DNA of 64,000 bases. Source: Phocoena phocoena. Its lineage: Eukaryota > Chordata > Mammalia > Artiodactyla > Phocoenidae. This document shows, piece after piece, positions 26,969 through 59,279 of the stretch (position 1 is its first letter; every line of letters begins with the position of its first letter). Location: NCBI RefSeq assembly GCF_963924675.1, contig NC_089220.1:170238761-170302760 (forward strand), in the 5' to 3' direction. The notes below the pieces were generated by a model. The model was not told where the DNA came from and made no database searches. It worked only from the letters and a program-made list of their open reading frames with translations. The translations under genes and the position numbers were made by a program.

Positions 26969-27308
26969 GTAAATATAATGACATATTGTATATAAAATTA
27001 TTTTGAAAACATAAAGGGATATCTGTGGAAGCTATTACCGGTATGATCGCTTCCTGATTCCCCAGATAAGTGAGGCAGAAACAAGGGAAGTGAAATTAGG
27101 AGTTTGGGAGTAACATACACACTACTGTCTATGAAATAGATAACCAACAAGGACCTACTGTGTAGCACAGGCAACTCAATATTTTGTAATAATCTATTAG
27201 GGAAAAGGATCTGAAGAATATATGTATCTATAACTGAATCACTGTGCTGTGTACCTGAAACTAACACATTGTAAATCGACTACACTTCAATTTAAAGAAA
27301 ATAAGTAA
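26969..27308 (+). repeat. Left arm of a long inverted repeat
   Basis: These 340 bases reappear in reverse complement at 28724-29067, with five base differences and one 4-base indel in my hand alignment. The arm contains about 108 bases of single-copy flank and target site, then most of the L1 fragment at 27094-27324. Here the L1 is flanked by its target-site duplication on both sides, so this arm is the ancestral location. Confidence 0.95.
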
Positions 27309-27324
27309 GTAAAATTTTAAAAAA
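27094..27324 (+). mobile_element. 5'-truncated L1 3' end with 17-bp duplication
   Basis: It starts in the L1 3' UTR ('aattaggagtttgggagt') and ends in an A-rich tail. The flanks AGAAACAAGGGAAGTGA (27077-27093) and AGAAACAAGGTAAGTGA (27325-27341) differ at one base. Confidence 0.9.
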
Positions 27325-28723
27325 AGAAACAAGGTAAGTGAGTTGCCATGATTAGACTTTGCCTCAGAGTTAGAAAACTGCAAGCCTCCTTCCAAATCTG
27401 AAGGTAAGCAGAATAATGAGTTTTCCATCTTAAAAACAAAACGTAAAACTCTTTGCACAATAAAGTCTTGCAAATTGTTAACAGGTAAAACAGAAGTTGA
27501 ATGATTCTGGCTGGAACCGAGGATCTGGGGACAGTCAGCCCAGCCCCGTCCCTGACAAGGGGGTACTGGGCACCACCCCCGAAGCCCTGGCAACCCAGAC
27601 ACTTCTCCTGACCTTGAAGGCAGCTGAGAGGGAGGGAGAGAGGTAAGCGGGGGCTCTCTTAGATCGGTCTGGACCCCAAGTGGTACGGTGTTTTGTGGGT
27701 CCCAAACACGCAGTCACTTTCTCCAAGGCCAGTGGCTGAGTCAGGGGAGAGTCCGGGGGTTCTGACCACCTAGAACAGTGCCTGGCGCATGGCAGGCTCT
27801 CAGTGACCATCCATCACCAATAAACAAACGAGCGAATGAGTGAGTGCTGAAGAAGCAGTGGTGCTGACCCACTCCCCGAATTGACACCTGAGCCCTAGCC
27901 CCTCTCAGAGCCAATCCTCCCGTTAAAATGCAGGAAGGGACATCAGAGCACCACGCCCTGTGTTCTTTCGTGCGGTGGGGTGGAAGCAGGTGTCCTCCCG
28001 TTTCTGGATGCTTTCCTCTGACGATGCTGGATGTGCTCATTTTCTTGCACTGCCCTGTGGCCGACTGCTTGCTCCCATGTCGTGAGTTTTGAGTGGTGGC
28101 TCCAGAGCCACAAAAAGAAGGGGGTCTGGTGCTGCTGGCCCATGACCCGCAGCGGGCTGCTGGGGATGAACAAAGCTCCCCCTTCCCTACAAGTGGAATA
28201 GGACAGCGAGGCTGGGCATGGGGGCAGGGACGCGTGGCAGGAGCTGGCTTTAAAGCCACCACTACTGACAAAGAAATGCAGTCGTGACCTGGGCAGGAGA
28301 GAGGATGCCGCAGAGAGAGGAGTGGTGGGGAGAGCAGAGGAAGGATGAGAAGCAGGAGGGCACCTGTCTGGTTTGGATCAGGCTGAAGGCACCATCTGGG
28401 CGGCTGTTCAAACGCTGAGATAGGAAAGGATTTTGACGTCTTTTAAGTCGGTTCCGGCCTCAGAAGCTGCCTCACTGGGGAAGTTCACCTCTCTCTTCTG
28501 CCTTTAAATTCCCCACTCGTGCTGGTTGCCTTCCCTGCTCAATTTACGACACCCCACCTCCAATACAGACACATATGCAAACATACACACAAGACAGACA
28601 TATAACACACAACAAACATACATGTATAAACACACAGTGCATACAAACACAACAAACGTACACATACACACATATGCAAACACAGACACATAACACACAA
28701 ACACACATGATAAACACACCTGT
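27309..28723. other. Spacer between the inverted arms
   Basis: The 1.4-kb spacer is GC-richer than its surroundings. It holds an L2-like scrap at about 27765-27845 ('gtgcctggcgcatggcagg') and a CA-rich tract at 28560-28720. A 176-codon minus-strand frame at 27741-28271 is the longest open frame outside L1. It overlaps the L2 scrap, has no recognisable domain and is not called. Confidence 0.6.
28560..28720 (+). repeat. CA-rich simple repeat (degenerate)
   Basis: About 160 bases of imperfect CA, ACA and CATA units end next to the right inverted arm. A TG-rich tract starts on the other side of that arm. Confidence 0.9.
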
Positions 28724-29067
28724 TTACTTATTTTCTTTAAATTGAAGTGTAGTCGATTTACAATGTGTTAGTTTCAGGTACACAGCACAGTGATTCAGTT
28801 ATGGATACATATATTCTTCAGATCCTTTTCCCTAATAGATTATTACAAAATATTGAGTTGCCTGTGCTACACAGTAGGTCCTTGTTGGTTATCTATTTCA
28901 TAGACAGTAGTGTGTATGTTACTCCCAAACTCCTAATTTCACTTCCCTTGTTTCTGCCTCACTTATCTGGGGAATCAGGAAGCGATCATAATAACCGGTA
29001 ATAGCTTCCATAGCTATCCCTTTACGTTTTCAAAATAATTTTATATACAATATGTCATTAGATTTAC
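28724..29067 (-). repeat. Right arm of the inverted repeat (derived copy)
   Basis: The 344 bases are a reverse complement of 26969-27308 with an extra four bases near 28993. The copy includes the single-copy flank, the 5' target-site duplication and the L1 body. It stops within the L1 tail and lacks the 3' duplication, so it was copied from the left arm after the L1 had inserted there. Confidence 0.95.
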
Positions 29068-29470
29068 GTATACCTGTGTGTGCATGTTTATGTACATATG
29101 TGTGTATATGCATTTCTGTGTATGTGTGTGCATGGAGGCATGCTTGTCTATGCATGCTTGTGTAGTGTATGTGCATTTGTGTGTTTGTGCGTGGTTTTTG
29201 TTTTTGTTTTTTTTTTTTTGGTACGCGGGCCTCTCACTGTTGTGGCCTCTCCCATTGCGGAGCACAGGCTCAGTAGCCATGGCTCATGGGCCCAGCCGCT
29301 CCGCGGCATGTGGGATCTTCCCGGACCGGGGCACGAACCCGTGTCCCCTGCGTCGGCAGGCGGACTCTCAACCACTGCGCCACCAGGGAAGCCCTTGTGC
29401 GTGTGTTTTGTGTATGTGTCTCTGCGTGTCTGTGTGTGAATGTGTCTCTGCGTTTATACATGTATGATAT
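29068..29470 (+). repeat. TG-rich simple repeat, split by a SINE
   Basis: Imperfect TG, TGTA and TGCA units run from 29068 to 29193 and again from 29395 to about 29470, separated by the SINE insertion. Confidence 0.9.
29194..29394 (-). mobile_element. CHR-2-type SINE (minus), internally deleted
   Basis: It is flanked by a perfect 9-bp duplication TTGTGCGTG (29185-29193 and 29395-29403). Compared with the other copies it lacks about 15 bases near 29267-29271, between two short CAGGCTC repeats. The tail is a T-rich run at 29195-29219. Confidence 0.95.
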
Positions 29471-29956
29471 CATCTGAAGGAAGAATCCTGCTATAAAAAT
29501 TGCTGGAAAGCCAATGATATATTTTATCCCTTGTCTTACATGAGGAGAGGCAGGACAAACAGGATCTGGCTCTGTAAGCAAATCCAGTCATTGGGAACAG
29601 TTTTCTAGAGGGTTCTGCAGCCAGTGGGAAAAGGGCAGGGTCTTGGGAGGCAGGGAAAGGAACACCAATGCCCCGTTGACCATCACAGTTCTAAAGGGAA
29701 CACAGGCCCAGAGAAGCTGCCCCAGACCCACAGTGGGTTAGTGGCAACTGAGCTAGGACAGGCAGGCAGGCCTCTGGTCATCAGCCCAGTGTGGCTCCTG
29801 CTATCCAGAGCAACTTTCTGTGTCATGAAGTGAAAAGAAGTGAAATTAAAATCAAGGCACTGAGCTCCCCTGACCAGGCTCTGCCACAGCCTCTACTGAT
29901 GACCTTGGACAAGGCATGTGCTTTGGAAATCCATCATGTAAGAAATGCCATGGCCT
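29471..29956. other. Unassigned sequence
   Basis: Nothing recognised before the next L1. Confidence 0.4.
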
Positions 29957-42002: not shown

Positions 42003-42747
42003 TTTTTTTTTTAAACATCTTTATTGGAGTATAATTGCTTTACAATGTTGTGTTAGTTTCTGCTATATAACAAAGTGAATCAGCTATATGTATACATATA
42101 TCCCCACATCCCCTCCCTCTTGCGTCTCCCTCCCACCCTCCTTATCCCACCCCTCTACGTGGTCACAAAGCACCGAGCTGATCTCCCTGTGCTATGCAGC
42201 TGCTTCCCACTAGCTATCTATTTTACATTTGGTGGCGTATATATGTCCATTCCACTCTCTCACTTCGTCCCAGCTTACCCTTCCCCTCCATCCACCTCAC
42301 TACAAGTAACTCAGTTTCGTTTCTTCTTATGGCTGAGTAATATTCCATTGTATATACGTGCCACATCTTTATCCATTCATCTGTCATTGGACACTTAGGT
42401 TGCTTCCATGTCCTGGCCATTGTAAATAGTGCTGCAATGAACATTGTGGTACAAGATTCTTTTTGAATCATGGTTTTCTCAGGGTATATGCCCAGTAGTG
42501 GGATAGCTGGGTCGTATGGTAGTTCTGTTTTTAGTTTTTTGAGAAACCTCCATACTGTTCTCCATAGTGGCTGTATCAATTTACATTCCCACCAACAGTG
42601 CAAGAGTGTTCCCTTTTCTCCACACCCTCTTCAGCATTTATTGTCTGTAGATTTTTTGATGATGGCCATTCTGATTGGTGTGAGGCGATACCTCATTGTA
42701 GTTTTGATTTGCATTTCTCTAATGATTAGTGATGTTGAGCATCCTTT
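42003..42747 (-). mobile_element. 5'-truncated L1 (minus), head to head with the next L1
   Basis: The 3' end with a T-run (42002-42013) is at the left and the element extends in reverse into the ORF2 C-terminal region, ending at 'gcatcctttca'. About 190 bases between the end of ORF2 and the 3' UTR are missing near 42288-42302. A 126-codon minus-strand frame (42223-42603) is the broken ORF2 end. It abuts the next L1 directly at about 42747. Confidence 0.9.
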
Positions 42748-44466
42748 CAATAAGTTGTGCTGGGAAAACTGGACAGCAACATGTAAAAGAATGAAATCAG
42801 AACACTCCCTAACATCATACACAAAAATAAGCTCAAAATGGATTAAAGACCTAACTGTAAGGCCAGACACGATCAAACTCTTAGGGGAAAACACAGGCAG
42901 AACACTCTATGACATACATCACACAGCAAGATCCTTTTTGACCCACCTCCTAGAGAAATGGAAATAAAACCAAAAATAAACAAATGAGACCTAATGGAAC
43001 TTAAAAGCTTTTGCACAGCAAAGGAAACCATAAACAAGACGAAAAGACAACCATCAGAATGGGAGAAAATATTCTGAAGCAACAGACAAAGGATTAATCT
43101 CTAAAACATACAAGCAGCTCATGCAGCTCAATATCAAAAAAACAAACAACCCAATCCAAAAATGGGCCGAAGATCTAAACAGACATTTCTCCAAAGAAGA
43201 TGTACAGATTGCCAACAAACACAGGAAAGGATGCTCAACATCACTAATCATTAGAGAAATGCAAATAAAAACTACAATGTGGGGACTTCCCTGGTGGCAC
43301 AGTGGTTAAGAATCTGCCTGCCAATGCAGGGGACACGGTTCGATCCCTGGTCCAGGAAGATCCCACATGCTGCGGAGCAACTAAGCCCATGCGCCACAAC
43401 TACTGAGCCTGTGCTCTACAGTCTGCGAGCCACAACTACTGAGCCCGCACACCTAGAGCCCGTGCTCCACAAGAGGAACCACCACAATGAGAAGCCCGTG
43501 CACCGCAACGAAGAGTAGCCCCCGCTCGCTGCAACTAGAGAAAGCCCGTGTACAGCAACGAAGACCCAACACAGCCAAAAATAAATAAATTTATATAAAA
43601 AAAAACTACAATGAGGTATCACCTCACACTAGTCAGAATGGCCATCATCAAAAAATCTACAAATAATAAATGCTGGAGAGTGTGTGGAGAAAAGGGAACC
43701 CTCTTGCACTGTTGGTAGGACTGTAAATTGATACAGCCACTATGGAGAACAGTATGGAGGTTCCTTAAAAAACAAAAATTAGAACTACTATATGACCCAG
43801 CAATCCCACTACTGGGCATATACCCAGAGAAAACCATAATTCAAAAAGATACATGCACCCCATTGTTCATTGCAGCACTATTTACAATAGCCAGGTCATG
43901 GAAGCAACCTAAGTGTCCATCGACAGATGTGGCACGTATATACAAAGGAATATTACTCAGCCATAAAAAGAAATGAAATTGAGTTATTTGTAGTGAGGTG
44001 GATGGACCTAGAGTTTGTCATACAGAGTGAAGTAAGTCAGAAAGAGAAAGACAAATACCGTATGCTAACACGTATATATGGAATTTTAAAAAAAAAAAGA
44101 AAAGAGAAAATGGTTCTGAAGAACCTAGGGGTAGGACAGGAATAAAGACGCAAGACGTAGAGAATGGACTTGAGGACATGGGGAGGGGGAAGGGTGGGCT
44201 GGGAGGAAGTGAGAGAGTGGCATGGACATATATACACTACCAAATGTAATATAGATAGCTAGTGGGAAGCAGCCGCATAGCACAGGGAGATCAGCTCAGT
44301 GTTTTGTGACCACCTAGAGGGGTGGGATAGGGAGGGTGGGAGGGAGACACAAGAGGGAGGAGATATGGGGATATATGTATACATAGAGTTGATTCACTTT
44401 GTGATACAGCAGACGCTAACATAACATTGTGAAGCAATTATACTCCAATAAAGATGTTAAAAAATA
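42748..44466 (+). mobile_element. 5'-truncated L1 (plus), interrupted by a CHR-1 SINE
   Basis: It starts in ORF2 at 'caataagttgtgctgggaa', runs through the C-terminus, and ends at 'ccaataaagatgttaaaaaa'. ORF2 carries stops, for example near 42966, and a short deletion near 43928. The SINE at 43280-43600 lies inside it. It is about 1.4 kb without the SINE. Confidence 0.9.
43280..43600 (+). mobile_element. CHR-1-type SINE (plus) inside L1
   Basis: This is a full-length copy of about 320 bases with a tRNA-like head, CHR-1 body and an A-rich tail with AAAT units. A perfect 13-bp duplication of L1 sequence AAAAACTACAATG flanks it (43267-43279 and 43601-43613). Confidence 0.95.
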
Positions 44467-51847: not shown

Positions 51848-52136
51848 TTTTATTGAAGTAGACTTGATTTACAACTTTGTGTTCGTTTCTGCTGTACAGT
51901 AAACTGACTCCATTATACATATATATTCCTTTTTTATATATTCTTTTCCCTTATGGTTTATCATAGAATACTGAATACAGTTCCCGGTGCTATACAGTAG
52001 GACCTTGTTTATCCATCCAATATATACTAGCTTACATCTGCTCACCCCGAACTCCCACTCCATCCCTCCCCCAGACCCCTCCCCCTGGGCAACCACCAGT
52101 CTGTTCGCTATGTTGATGAGTCTGTTTCTGTTTTGC
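51848..52136 (-). mobile_element. 5'-truncated L1 3' end (minus) inside the retrovirus
   Basis: An L1 3' UTR in reverse starts at a T-run (51844-51851). The flanks GAAACCTTAAGTTTT (51833-51847) and GAATACCTTAAATTTT (52137-52152) are a diverged target-site duplication. Confidence 0.85.
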
Positions 52137-53468: not shown

Positions 53469-54085
53469 GATTAAAAACATTCCCAGCTCCCCCTTCCTCC
53501 ATCTCCGCCACGGGTGGTGTCCCAGGCAGCGTCTCCAGCATCATACAGCCTCCTAGAATCAGATGCTTTTACATTCTCCTCACTGTGCCGTGTGGATGAA
53601 AGGCTCTTGGTGCTGCAGCCAGAAGTTAGTGCTGTGCCTCTGAGGTGGGAGAGCCAACTTCAGGACACTGGTCCACAAGAGACCTCCCAGCTGCACATAA
53701 TATCCAACGGCGAAAATCTCCCAGAGATCTCCATCTCAACACCAGCACCCAGCTTCACTCAACGACTAGCAAGCTACAGTGCTGGACATCCTATGCCAAA
53801 CAACTAGCAAGACAGGAACACAACCCCATCCATTAGCAGAGAGGCTGCCTAAAATCACAATAAGTCAACAGACACCCCAAAACACACCACCAGACGTAGA
53901 CCTGCCCACCAGAAAGACAAGATCCAGCCTCATCCACCAGAACACAGCCACTAGTCCCCTCCACCAGGAAGCCTACACAACCCACTGAACCAACCTTAGC
54001 TACTGGGGACAGACACCAAAAACAACAGGAACTACGAACCTGCAGCCTGCAAAAAGGAGACCCTAAACACAGTAAGATAAGAAAA
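53469..54085 (+). promoter_or_regulatory. L1 5' UTR (internal promoter region)
   Basis: It precedes ORF1 and contains the cetartiodactyl L1 leader 'ccaactagcaagacaggaac'-like sequence near 53799-53821. By analogy with other mammalian L1s this region carries the internal RNA polymerase II promoter. Promoter activity is not shown by the sequence. Confidence 0.7.
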
Positions 54086-54979
54086 ATGAGAAGACAGAAA
54101 AACACACAGCAGATGAAGGAGCAAGATAAAAACCCACCAGACCTAACAAATGAAGAGGAAATAGGCAGTCTACCTGGAAAAGAATTCAGAATAATGATAG
54201 TAAAGATGATCCAAAATCTTGGAAATAGAATAGACAAAATGCAAGAAACATTTAACAAGGACCTAGAAGAACTAAAGATGAAACAAGCAACGATGAACAA
54301 CACAATAAATGAAATGAAAAATACTCTAGATGGGATCAATAGCAGAATAACTGAGGCAGAAGAACGGATAAGTGACCTGGAAGATAAAAGAGTGGAAATA
54401 ACTAATGCAGAGCAGAATAAAGAAAAAAGAATGAAAAGAACTGAGGACAGTCTCAGAGACCTCTGGGACAACATTAAACACACCAACATTCGAATTATAG
54501 GGGTTCCAGAAGAAGAAGAGAAAAAGAAAGGGACTGAGAAAATATTTGAAGAGATTAGAATTGAAAACTTCCCTAATATGGGAAAGGAAATACTTAATCA
54601 AGTCTAGGAAGCACAGAGAGTCCCATACAGGATAAATCCAAGGAGAAATACGCCAAGACACATATTAATCAAACTGTCAAAAATTAAATACAAAGAAAAC
54701 ATATTAAAAGCAGCAAGGGAAAAACAACAAATAGCCCACAAGGGAATCCCCATAAGGTTAACAGCTGATCTTTCAGCAGAAACTCTGCAAGCCAGAAGGG
54801 ACTGGCAGGACATCTTTAAAGTGATGAAGGAGAAAAACCTGCAACCAAGACTACCCTACCCAGCAAGGATCTCATTCAGATTTGATGGAGAAATTAAAAC
54901 CTTTACAGACAAGCAAAAGCTGAGAGAGTTCAGCACCACCAAACCAGCTCTACAACAACTGCTAAAGGAACTTCTCTAG
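54086..54979 (+). pseudogene. L1 ORF1 (RNA-binding chaperone), one nonsense codon
   Basis: In active L1s, ORF1p is a trimeric RNA-binding protein that coats L1 RNA in cytoplasmic particles. Here 298 codons in one frame end at TAG 54977-54979. The N-terminal third is charged and rich in Lys, Glu and Gln. A heptad-like coiled-coil region covers about residues 45-115 (many Met, Leu, Ile spaced with Asn, Glu). An RRM-like segment starts near residue 130 ('TNIRIIGVPEEEE'), and the C-terminal domain follows. A premature TAG at 54605-54607, codon 174, falls in the RRM-like part. It looks like a C-to-T change of a CAG codon. After it the frame stays open to the normal end, so this is the only lesion. 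The start ATG was chosen because it opens the longest frame next to the 5' UTR. It is followed by ORF2 after 58 bases, the usual L1 arrangement. Confidence 0.9.
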
Positions 54980-55037
54980 GCAAGAAACACAAGAGAAGGA
55001 AAAGACCTACAATAACGAACCCAAAACAATTAAGAAA

Positions 55038-58000
55038 ATGGGAATAGGAACATACATATCGATAATTACCTTAAACGTAAATGGACTAAATGCTCCCACC
55101 AAAAGACACAGATTGCCTGAATGGATACAAAAACAAGACGCATATATTTGCTCTCTACAAGAGACCCACTTCAGACCTAGAGACACATACAGACTGAAAG
55201 TAAGGGGACGGAAAAAGATATTTCATGCAAATGGAAACCAAAAGAAAGCTGGAGTAGCAATTCTCATATCAGACAAAATAGACTTTAAAATAAAGACTAT
55301 TACAAGAGACAAAGAAGGACACTACATAATGATCAAGGGATCGATTCAAGAAGAAGATATAACAATAGTAAATATTTATGCACCCAACATAGGAGCACCT
55401 CAGTACATAAGGCAAATAGTAACAGCCATAAAAGGGGAAATCGACAGTAACACATTCATAGTAGGGGACTTTAACACCCCACTTTCACCAATGGACAGAT
55501 CATCCAAAATGAAAATACATAAGGAAACCCAAGCTTTAAATGATACATTAAACAAGATGGACTTAATTGATATTTATAGGACATTCCATCCAAAAACAAC
55601 AGAATACACATTTTTCTCTAGTGCTCATGGAACATTCTCCAGGATAGATCATATCTTGGGTCACAAATCAAGCCTTGGTAAATTTAAGAAAACTGAAATT
55701 GTATCAAGTATCTTTTCTGACCACAACACTATGAAACTAGATATCAATTACAGGAAAAGATCTGTAAAAAATACAAAACACATGGAGGCTAAACAATACA
55801 CTACTTAATAATGAAGCGATCACTGAAGAAATCCAAGAGGAAATCAAAAAATACCTAGAAACAAATGACAATGGAGACACGATGACCCAAAATCTATGGG
55901 ATGCAGCAAAATCAGTTCTAAGAGGGAAGTTTATAGCAATACAATCCTACCTTAAGAAACAGGAAACATCTCAAATAAGCAACCTAACCTTGCACCTAAA
56001 GCAATTAGAGAAAGAAGAACAAAAAAACCCCAAAGTTAGCAGAAGGAAAGAAATAATAAAAATCAGATCAGAAAAAAATGAAAAAGAAATGAAGGAAATG
56101 ATAGCAAAGATCAATAAAACTAAAAGCTGGTTCTTTGAGAAGATAAACAAAATTGATAAACCATTAGCCAGACTCAGCAAGAAAAAAAGGGAGAAGACTC
56201 AAATCAATAGAATTAGAAATGAAAAAGGAGAAGTAACAACTGACACTGCAAAAATATAAAAGATCATGAGAGATTACTACAAGCAACTCTATGCCAATAA
56301 AATGGACAACCTGGAAGAAATGGACAAATTCTCAGAAAGGCACAACCTGCCAAGACTGAATCAGGAAGAAATAGAAAAGGTGAACAGACCAATCACAAGC
56401 ACTGAAATTGAAACTGTGATTAAAAATCTTCCAACAAACAAAAGCCCAGGACCAGATGGCTTCACACGTGAATTCCATCAAACATTTAGAGAAGAGCTAA
56501 CACCTATCCTTCTCAAACTCTTCCAAAATATAGCAGAGGGAGGAACACTCCCAAACTCATTCTACGAGGCCACCATCACCCTGATACCAAAACCAGACAA
56601 GGATGTCACAAAGAAAGAAAACTACAGGCCAATATCACTGATGAACATAGATGCAAAAATCCTCAACAAAATACTAGCAAACAGAATCCAACAGCACATT
56701 AAACGGATCATACACCATGATCAAGTGGGGTTTATTCCAGGAATGCAAGGATTCTTCAATATACACAAATCAATCAACGTGATACATCATATTAACAAAT
56801 TGAAGGAGAAAAACCATATGATCATCTCAATAGATGCAGAGAAAGCTTTTGACAAAATTCAACACCCATTTATGATAAAAACCCTGCAGAAAGTAGGTAT
56901 AGAGGGAACTTTCCTCAACATAATAAAGGCCATATATGACAAACCCACAGCCAACATTGTCCTCAATGGTGAAAAGCTGAAAGCATTTCCACTAAGATCA
57001 GGAAGAAGACAAGGTTGCCCACTCTCACCACTCTTATTCAACATAGTTTTGGAAGTTTTAGCCACAGCAATCCGAGAAGAAAAGGAAATAAAAGGAATCC
57101 AAATCAGAAAAGAAGAAGTAAAGCTGTCACTATTTGCAGATGACATGATACTATACATAGAGAATCCTAAAGATGCTACCAGAAAACTACTAGAGGTCAT
57201 CAATGAATTTGGTAAAGTAGCAGGATACAAAATTAATGCACAGAAATCTCTGGCATTCCTATACACTAAGGATGAAAAATCTGAAAGTGAAATCAAGAAA
57301 ACACTCCCATTTACCACTGCAACAAAAAGAATAAAATATCTAGGAATAAACCTACCTAAGGAGACAAAAGACCTGTATGCAGAAAATTATAAGACACTGA
57401 TGAAAGAAATTAAAGATGATACAAATAGATGGAGAGATATACCATGTTCTTGGATTGGAAGAATCAACATTGTGAAAATGACTCTACTACCCAAAGCAAT
57501 CTACAGATTCAATGCAATCCCTATCAAACTACCACTGGCATTTTTCACAGAACTAGAACAAAAAATTTCACAATTTGTATGGAAACACAAAAGATCCTGA
57601 ATAGCCAAAGCAATCCTGAGAACGAAAAACGGAGCTGGAGGAATCAGGCTTCCTGACTTCAGACTATACTACAAAGCTACGGTAATCAAGACAGTATGGT
57701 ACTGGCACAAAAACAGAAATATAGATCAATGGAACAGGATAGAAAGCCCAGAGATAAACCCACGCACATATGGTCACCTTATCTTTGATAAAGGAGGCAG
57801 GAATGTACAGTGGAGAAAGGACAGCCTCTTCAATAAGTGGCGCTGGGAAAACTGGACAGCTACATGTAAAAGTATGAGATTAGATCACTCCCTAACACCA
57901 TACACAAAAATTAGCTCAAAATGGATTAAAGACCTAAATGTAAGGCCAGAAACTATCAAACTCTTAGAGGAAAACATAGGCAGAACACTCTATGACATAA

Positions 58001-58857
58001 AGCACAGCAAGGTCCTTTTTGACCCACCTCCTAGAGAAATGGAAATAAAAACAAAAATAAACAAATGGGACCTAATGAAACTTCAAAGCTTTTGCACAGC
58101 AAAGGAAACCATAAACAAGACCAAAAGACAACCCTCAGAATGGGAGAAAATATTTGCAAATGAAGCAACTGACAAAGGATTAATCTCCAAAATTTATAAG
58201 CAGCTCATGCAGCTTAATATCAAAAAAACAAACAACCCAATCCAAAAATGGGCAGAAGACCTAAATAGACATTTCTCCAAAGAAGATATACAGACTGCCA
58301 ACAAACACATGAAAGAATGCTCAACATCAGTAATCATTAGAGAAATGCAAATCAAAACTACAATGAGATATCATCTCATACCAGTCTGAATGGCCATCAT
58401 CAAAAAATCTAGAAACAATAAATGCTGGAGAGGGTGTGGAGAAAAGGGAACCCTCTTACATTGTTGGTGGGAATGTGAACTGATACAGCCACTGTGGAGA
58501 ACAGTATGGAGGTTCCTTTAAAAACTACAAATAGAACTACCATACGACCCAGCAATCCCACTACTGGGCATATACCCTGAGAAAACCATAATTCAAAAAG
58601 AATCATGTACCAAAATGTTTATTGCAGCTCTATTTACAATAGCCCGGAGATGGAAACAACCTAAGTGTCCATCATCGGAAGAATGGATAAAGAAGATGTG
58701 GCACATATATACAATGGAATATTACTCAGCCATAAAAAGAAATGAAATTGAGCTATTTGTAATGAGGTGGATAGACCTAGAGTCTGTCATACAGAGTGAA
58801 GTAAGTCAGAAAGAGAGAGACAAATACCGTATGCTAACACATATATATGGAATTTAA
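55038..58857 (+). pseudogene. L1 ORF2 (endonuclease and reverse transcriptase), five lesions
   Basis: In active L1s ORF2p nicks target DNA and reverse-transcribes RNA at the nick. The first 256 codons (55038-55808) encode the endonuclease, with 'NVNGLNAP', 'SLQETHF', 'GDFNTPLSPMDR' and the catalytic 'SDHN' visible. An extra A in the run at 55775-55778 shifts the frame; from there the reading continues in the next frame. In that frame lie nonsense codons at 56257-56259 (TAA), 57598-57600 (TGA), 58387-58389 (TGA) and 58519-58521 (TAA). The two TGAs look like CpG decay of CGA codons. The reverse-transcriptase domain is wholly open in 56266-57600 and keeps the catalytic Phe-Ala-Asp-Asp at 57133-57144. 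The C-terminal CX3CX7HX4C motif lies at about 58422-58478. The last frame ends at 58857. The protein cannot be made as a whole. Confidence 0.95.
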
Positions 58858-59206
58858 GGGGAAAAAATGTCATGAAGAATCTAGGGGTAAAACAGGAATA
58901 AAGACACAGACTTACTAGAGAATGGACTTGAGGATATGGGGAGGGGGAAGGGTAAACTGTGACAAAGCGAGAGAGAGGCATGGACACATATACACTACCA
59001 AACGTAACGTAGATAGCTAGTGGGAAGCAGCCGCATAGCACAGGGAGATCAGCTTGGTGCTCTGTGACTGCCTGGAGGGGTGGGAGGGAGGGAGATGCCA
59101 GCGGGAAGAGATATGGGAACATATGTATATATATAACTGATTCATTTTGTTGTGAAGCTGAAACTAACACACCATTGTAAAGCAATTATACTCCAATTTA
59201 AAAAAA
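58858..59206 (+). other. L1 3' UTR and tail
   Basis: It contains the G-rich polypurine stretch at about 58939-58951, the typical 'agtgggaagcagccgcatag' block and the ending 'gcaattatactccaattt' followed by an A-run. The 3' duplication begins at 59207. Confidence 0.9.
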
Positions 59207-59279
59207 AAGAATTCTATAGTATGAAAAGGTGACTAAAATACCAGTAGTAAATAAGTCCCGAGTGACAGTGAGGATATTA

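What the first reader, a model, noticed from the sequence alone, without database searches (positions are those of the whole stretch)
26969..29067. Recent inverted duplication that carried an L1 insertion with it
Seen directly: 26969-27308 and the reverse complement of 28724-29067 match along about 340 bases, with five differences and one 4-base indel by hand alignment. The left copy has the L1 with a target-site duplication on both sides (27077-27093, 27325-27341). The right copy includes single-copy flank, the 5' duplication and the L1 body but ends inside the L1 tail. So the right arm is an inverted patch copied from the left, not a second L1 insertion. Inference: replication template switching or break repair placed a templated inverted insert 1.4 kb away. 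The arms could also form a long hairpin.
Basis: partly seen in the sequence, partly recalled or inferred. Interest (0 to 1): 0.75.

Follow-up and report, generated by a model that had tools for sequence, protein, structure and literature searches.

The report
Inverted DNA patch copied from nearby
A 340-base piece of a (probably whale) chromosome, old jumping-gene insertion included, was copied back to front into a spot 1.4 thousand bases away, most likely by a slip of DNA copying or repair; a clean example of a known kind of mutation.

Summary
26969-27308 and the reverse complement of 28724-29067 match at 335 of 340 aligned bases plus one 4-base indel; it is the most similar pair of 60 bases or more in the window. 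The left arm is the source: it holds a complete 5'-truncated L1 end with target-site duplications (16 of 17 bases). The right arm has flank, the 5' duplication and the L1, and stops inside the L1 tail. Both arms share 28 of 28 L1 positions that depart from the window majority, and at the one difference inside the L1, 13 of 13 other copies agree with the left arm. So this is a copy of an aged insertion, not a second L1.

New here: the patch lies where a CA-rich strand turns TG-rich, bordered by a 6-base direct repeat (ACCTGT). The inferred empty site is the window's strongest CA-to-TG switch; fold-back there is plausible but not beyond composition. Best explanation: inverted templated insertion by double template switch (FoSTeS/MMBIR-like) or break repair, roughly 8 Myr old (2.6-19) if an odontocete rate applies. 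New member of a known kind. Outgroups and reads could not be checked.

The parts
26969..27308 (+). left arm: source (donor) of the patch
   Evidence: 335 of 340 identical to the right arm
27077..27093 (+). 5' target-site duplication of the L1; also present in the right arm
   Evidence: 16 of 17 identical to 27325-27341
27094..27324 (+). 5'-truncated L1 3' end, divergent (31 of 190 scored positions differ from the majority of 13 other window copies)
   Evidence: blastn to other window copies, best 81%; majority comparison
27325..27341 (+). 3' target-site duplication of the L1, absent from the right arm
27309..28723 (.). 1415-base spacer between the arms (55% GC over 27400-28540)
   Evidence: one 233-aa stop-to-stop frame in it has no Pfam match
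28560..28723 (+). CA-rich left border tract of the insertion site
   Evidence: 43 CA against 6 TG in 164 bases
28718..28723 (+). ACCTGT, left copy of the 6-base direct repeat bordering the patch
   Evidence: coordinates read
28724..29067 (-). right arm: inverted templated patch (copy of 26969-27308)
29068..29071 (+). four bases (GTAT) between the matched patch and the repeat; 2 of 4 match the donor, possibly untemplated
   Evidence: read
29072..29077 (+). ACCTGT, right copy of the 6-base direct repeat
   Evidence: coordinates read
29068..29194 (+). TG-rich right border tract
   Evidence: 32 TG against 7 CA in 127 bases

Best explanation
An inverted, locally templated insertion. Shown: the right arm is a copy of the left, made after the L1 had inserted and aged there; it sits at a CA-rich to TG-rich switch between two ACCTGT repeats. 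Inferred: a replication fork stalled or a break occurred at the CA/TG switch, whose strand can fold back on itself, and freed a 3' end. That end re-primed on the A-rich tail of the L1 1.4 kb away, copied about 340 bases in the opposite direction (through the L1 and 125 bases of its 5' flank), then returned to the original site a few bases behind where it left, repeating ACCTGT. The opposite order (start at the right junction J2, end in the L1 tail) fits equally well. This is the double template switch of the FoSTeS/MMBIR family; repair of a 6-base staggered break with a local templated patch is nearly the same event and cannot be told apart here.
For: Arm identity and direction. Closeness (1415 bases) and inverted orientation are what local template switching gives; the MMBIR signature from yeast is an insertion close to, and inverted with respect to, its template (PMC8421209, passages), and templated insertions of 376 and 815 bp are listed at human rearrangement junctions (PMC5120786, passages). 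The 6-base direct repeat touches the left junction J1 and lies 4 bases from J2: chance 0.5% with local composition in the strict test, 2.8% relaxed (the allowed gap was chosen after seeing the repeat). The inferred empty site has a CA-to-TG switch score of 43; the maximum over the window as it stands is 25, itself at this site, and the best elsewhere is 24. Five of the six differences lie within 74 bases of the J2 end: P = 0.005 anchored to either end, 0.03 as a free scan, as error-prone repair synthesis could leave.
Against: No microhomology at J1 if the repeat is read as a target duplication, and four poorly matched bases at J2. The fold-back energy of the inferred empty site (-23.9 against a window mean of -9.5) is no stronger than shuffles of its two sides (P = 0.23), so it is a matter of composition. 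At 340 bases copied from 1.4 kb away it exceeds the short template switches of the gold-standard hominid set (median 12, maximum 128 bases; PMC7954356, passages). No empty site was seen in a relative. The clustering tests are post hoc.
Confidence: 0.8

Rival explanations
1. RNA-mediated patch: a read-through transcript (5' flank plus L1 end) was reverse-transcribed, for instance by L1 ORF2 protein, and inserted in reverse 1.4 kb away (like a class 1 templated sequence insertion or an L1 5' transduction).
For: Read on the minus strand, the patch ends in an A-rich stretch followed by one copy of a 6-base direct repeat, and class 1 insertions have a duplication of at least 5 bp (PMC5110952). The window holds an L1 broken into several frames with endonuclease and reverse transcriptase domains, not shown to have been active.
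Against: No added poly(A), no AATAAA in the copied end, target CTGT/GT rather than TTTT/A (read). Landing 1.4 kb from the source would be a coincidence for a diffusing RNA (inference).
Confidence: 0.08
2. Older inverted duplication followed by gene conversion between the arms, which homogenised the inner part and left the outer end more diverged.
For: 5 events in 125 flank bases against 1 in 215 L1 bases (Fisher P = 0.027); a run of at least 186 identical bases (P = 0.06); the flank part alone dates to 17.6 Myr and the L1 part to 2.6 Myr at the same rate, with overlapping intervals (4.8-45.0 and 0.1-14.2).
Against: Borderline, post hoc statistics; the 52 flank bases next to the L1 (27042-27093) carry no difference, so the break is not at the L1 edge; error-prone synthesis in one event, or chance, explains it as well.
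Confidence: 0.07
3. Assembly or library artefact (inverted chimera).
For: Inverted copies near their source are a known chimera type in amplified libraries (recalled); no reads could be inspected.
Against: Five substitutions and an indel between the arms, the L1-body one derived on the right by comparison with 13 other copies; a chimera would be expected to be nearly identical to its source.
Confidence: 0.04
4. Two independent L1 insertions.
For: Both arms contain the same L1 end.
Against: The right arm carries 125 bases of flank with the 5' duplication, lacks a complete tail, and shares 28 of 28 scored departures from the L1 majority.
Confidence: 0.01

Closest known systems
MMBIR/FoSTeS templated insertions (MMB-TIs)
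   Same: Nearby inverted copy of its template, template retained (PMC8421209, passages; PMC2621351, passages)
   Different: Longer and farther than the class screened in PMC8421209 (templates within 100 bp, inserts up to a read length); no clear microhomology at J1
Four-point template-switch mutations of great apes (PMC7954356, passages)
   Same: Reverse-complement patch with two switch points, making an inverted repeat
   Different: 340 bases over 1.4 kb; their gold-standard maximum is 128 bases
Templated sequence insertions and polymorphisms (TSI, TSIP; PMC5110952, parts 1 and 2 of 4)
   Same: Patch copied from elsewhere, donor intact, size within the range of the experimental insertions (73-414 bp)
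   Different: Source is local, not distant; border features mix class 1 (6-base duplication) and class 2 (no poly(A), possible untemplated bases)

Membership tests
MMBIR/FoSTeS inverted templated insertion | Insert is a nearby reverse-complement copy and the template is retained | tested here: met
MMBIR/FoSTeS inverted templated insertion | Microhomology at the junctions (2-12 bp in 80% of the junctions analysed in PMC8421209) | tested here: inconclusive
   J1 none under the repeat reading; J2 a shifted CCT only; the ancestral site is unknown
MMBIR/FoSTeS inverted templated insertion | Insert absent in the ancestor | not testable with these tools
   the own-genome search did not complete and no mammal collection was to hand
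Class 1 TSIP (L1-mediated) | Duplication of at least 5 bp at the insertion site | tested here: met
   ACCTGT, 6 bp
Class 1 TSIP (L1-mediated) | Untemplated poly(A) of 10-40 bases with AATAAA upstream | tested here: not met
   the patch end ...AAAATAAGTAA is templated; no AATAAA there
Class 1 TSIP (L1-mediated) | Insertion at TTTT/A | tested here: not met
   junction after CACCTGT
Class 2 TSIP (break repair) | No target duplication; microdeletion, microhomology or added bases | tested here: inconclusive
   possible 4 added bases at J2, but a 6-bp repeat is present
L1 insertion (left arm) | Target-site duplication, A-rich tail and 5' truncation | tested here: met
   the family name L1 rests on recall, plus a 79% match of its 3' part to 59121-59207, downstream of the L1 protein frames

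The most novel reading that the evidence does not exclude
Places where a CA-rich strand turns into a TG-rich strand act as fold-back sites that capture kilobase-distant inverted patches with a short duplication centred on the fold, so such insertions would form a recurrent class of break-and-copy events, longer than the short template switches now catalogued; here it also made a 340-bp hairpin locus in one step.
Probability: 0.12. Interest if true: 0.5.

Novelty: new member of a known kind. Interest (0 to 1): 0.27.

Why it matters
It is a well-polarised natural case: an aged L1 marks direction and order, so with one outgroup one could read which strand was template, where both switches fell, and how many errors the synthesis left. 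Its size and distance fall between short template-switch mutations and disease-scale rearrangements, a range that short reads handle badly (inference). If transcribed it would give long double-stranded RNA, but nothing shows that it is.

Tried and rejected
Second L1 insertion: rejected. Flanking CA and TG tracts as relics of a larger inverted duplication: alignment of the left tract with the reverse complement of the near right tract is no better than shuffles (P = 0.42); with the tract beyond the SINE P = 0.014 and with both joined P = 0.066; not pursued, as these are three tests on simple sequence. Hairpin energy of the empty site as a special feature: not beyond composition (P = 0.23). Rfam: 0 matches at gathering thresholds in the window. 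A coding role: 9 of the 56 stop-to-stop frames of 110 aa or more were scanned; 3 of the 9 matched Pfam above cut-off, with L1-type domains at 53.9-57.6 kb; the 233-aa frame in the spacer matched nothing. Extending the border repeat to 10 bases gives 7 of 10 matches (by eye), too weak given about 1.5% arm divergence. Literature: seven searches were seen as listings with abstract openings; none of the listed items is about this locus. Passages of PMC11226609 were seen and not used.

Full report
Observation. The two arms are real and at the stated coordinates. Direct reading, an inverted-repeat search and a local alignment agree: 26969-27308 pairs with the reverse complement of 28724-29067 over 340 aligned bases with 5 mismatches and one 4-base gap; the inner 267 bases (27042-27308) carry a single mismatch. 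In a blastn of the window against itself (190 rows at E up to 1e-5 after dropping self and mirrored rows) this is the top pair by identity among those of 60 bases or more, 97.4% with the gap counted; the next, members of a SINE-like family, reach 92.8%.

Which copy is the source. The left arm contains a short L1 3' end, 27094-27324, between duplications 27077-27093 and 27325-27341 that differ at 1 of 17 bases. The right arm holds 125 bases upstream (including the 5' duplication) and the L1 up to 27308, then breaks off inside the A-rich tail. A complete, doubly bordered insertion cannot be derived from a cut-off one. The best match of the L1 body to any other window copy is 81%. In an alignment with 13 other window copies the left L1 differs from the majority at 31 of 190 scored positions; 28 of these lie in the part held by the right arm and, since the arms differ only at 27229 there, all 28 are shared. 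At 27229 all 13 other copies have T, as the left arm has; the right arm has C. The L1 therefore inserted and aged on the left, and was copied to the right later. Caveat: the 13 copies are of mixed age and alignment quality (6% to 36% from the majority).

Age. 5 substitutions in 340 bases give 8.1 Myr (Poisson 95% interval 2.6-18.9) at 9.10e-10 per site per year, the odontocete rate quoted in PMC4895049 (passage); with the quoted bounds of the rate the point estimate runs from 6.2 to 11.0 Myr. Taken apart, the L1 part (1 in 215) gives 2.6 Myr (0.1-14.2) and the flank part (4 in 125) 17.6 Myr (4.8-45.0) at the same rate. PMC9005726 (passages) uses 7.69e-10 for bowhead whales.

Site of insertion. 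Left of the patch 28560-28723 is CA-rich (43 CA, 6 TG); right of it 29068-29194 is TG-rich (32 TG, 7 CA), continuing past a SINE (19 TG, 2 CA in 29395-29475). ACCTGT directly precedes the patch (28718-28723) and recurs 4 bases after its matched end (29072-29077). With junctions moved within the same tracts, a repeat this long occurs in 0.47% of 16,272 placements (strict test: word ending at J1, starting 0-6 bases after J2) or 2.8% of 3,000 (relaxed: gap of 0-6 allowed at both); in the strict test, 0.34% of 100,000 random pairs over the window. Joining the flanks with one ACCTGT gives an inferred empty site whose CA-to-TG switch score is 43; the maximum over the window as it stands is 25, itself at this site, and the best elsewhere is 24 at 52106. 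As single-stranded DNA its 120 bases fold at -23.9 kcal/mol against -9.5 +/- 4.5 for 319 window segments, 0.6% of which reach it. Shuffling each side separately gives -22.0 +/- 2.7 (P = 0.23): the folding comes from the opposed composition, not from a specific palindrome. The small stem at the centre (CACAC, 4-base loop, GTGTG; -4.1) overlaps the ACCTGT repeat.

Distribution of differences. Measured from the J2 end the six events fall at 6, 42, 53, 56, about 73 and 260. Five within 74 of 340: P = 0.005 if anchored to an end, 0.03 as a scan; flank against L1, Fisher P = 0.027; an identical run of at least 186, P = 0.06. These are post hoc and fit error-prone synthesis near one switch, partial gene conversion, or chance.

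Mechanism. Two template switches on one strand (out to the L1 tail region and back), or the same read from the other end, give an inverted patch with the donor retained. PMC2621351 (passages) states that a second inverted switch within a single series would restore a viable chromosome structure. PMC8421209 (passages) gives the yeast MMBIR signature as a nearby inverted copy flanked by microhomology, and finds 2-12 bp at 80% of the junctions of 103 insertions analysed. PMC5120786 (passages) lists templated insertions of 376 and 815 bp among others and says that blunt ends, small insertions or 1-2 bp microhomology are not uncommon at such junctions. Template switches of the gold-standard hominid set have a median of 12 and a maximum of 128 bases (PMC7954356, passages), so this event is long for that class. 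An RNA-mediated route fails on poly(A), AATAAA and TTTT/A, though the 6-base duplication fits (class definitions in PMC5110952, parts 1 and 2 of 4 read). That paper argues that its experimental insertions came from RNA, so an RNA template cannot be excluded; the closeness of source and target argues against it.

Consequence. In a minimum-energy RNA fold of 26969-29067, 337 of 340 left-arm bases pair with the right arm; on the other strand 336 of 344. A transcript would form long double-stranded RNA. There is no evidence of transcription, no Rfam match in the window at gathering thresholds, and no Pfam match for the spacer frame. PMC8794818 (passages) argues that template switching creates RNA hairpins, with short stems.

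Limits.

Verdict. Observation confirmed, interpretation supported, mechanism probable. It is an ordinary kind of event in an unusually legible and fairly large example.

Noticed in passing
29195-29394: SINE-like element (resembles the tRNA-derived CHR family, recalled) inserted in the TG tract; a 9-base repeat TTGTGCGTG borders it (29185-29193, 29395-29403, by eye). Related copies lie at about 2995, 11845, 36260, 52178 and 63142, 86-93% identical in the pairs printed.
   Followed up: partly
53900-58386: L1 broken into several frames: one with the L1 trimerization domain, one with an endonuclease domain, one with a reverse transcriptase domain; the last frame (57601-58386) had no Pfam match.
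   Followed up: no
42008-42286 and 44186-44464: Another inverted pair, 91.4% over 279 bases, among L1-like pieces that also match 8.9-9.8 kb and 58-60 kb; likely rearranged or inverted L1 fragments.
   Followed up: no
29398-29453: Imperfect tandem repeat of 26 bases (2.2 copies) within the TG tract beyond the SINE.
   Followed up: no
27741-28442: 233-aa stop-to-stop frame on the minus strand in the spacer between the arms; no Pfam match.
   Followed up: partly
28617-28631 and 29452-29466: 15-base exact inverted match between the two border tracts; weak signal (alignment P = 0.014, one of three tests).
   Followed up: partly
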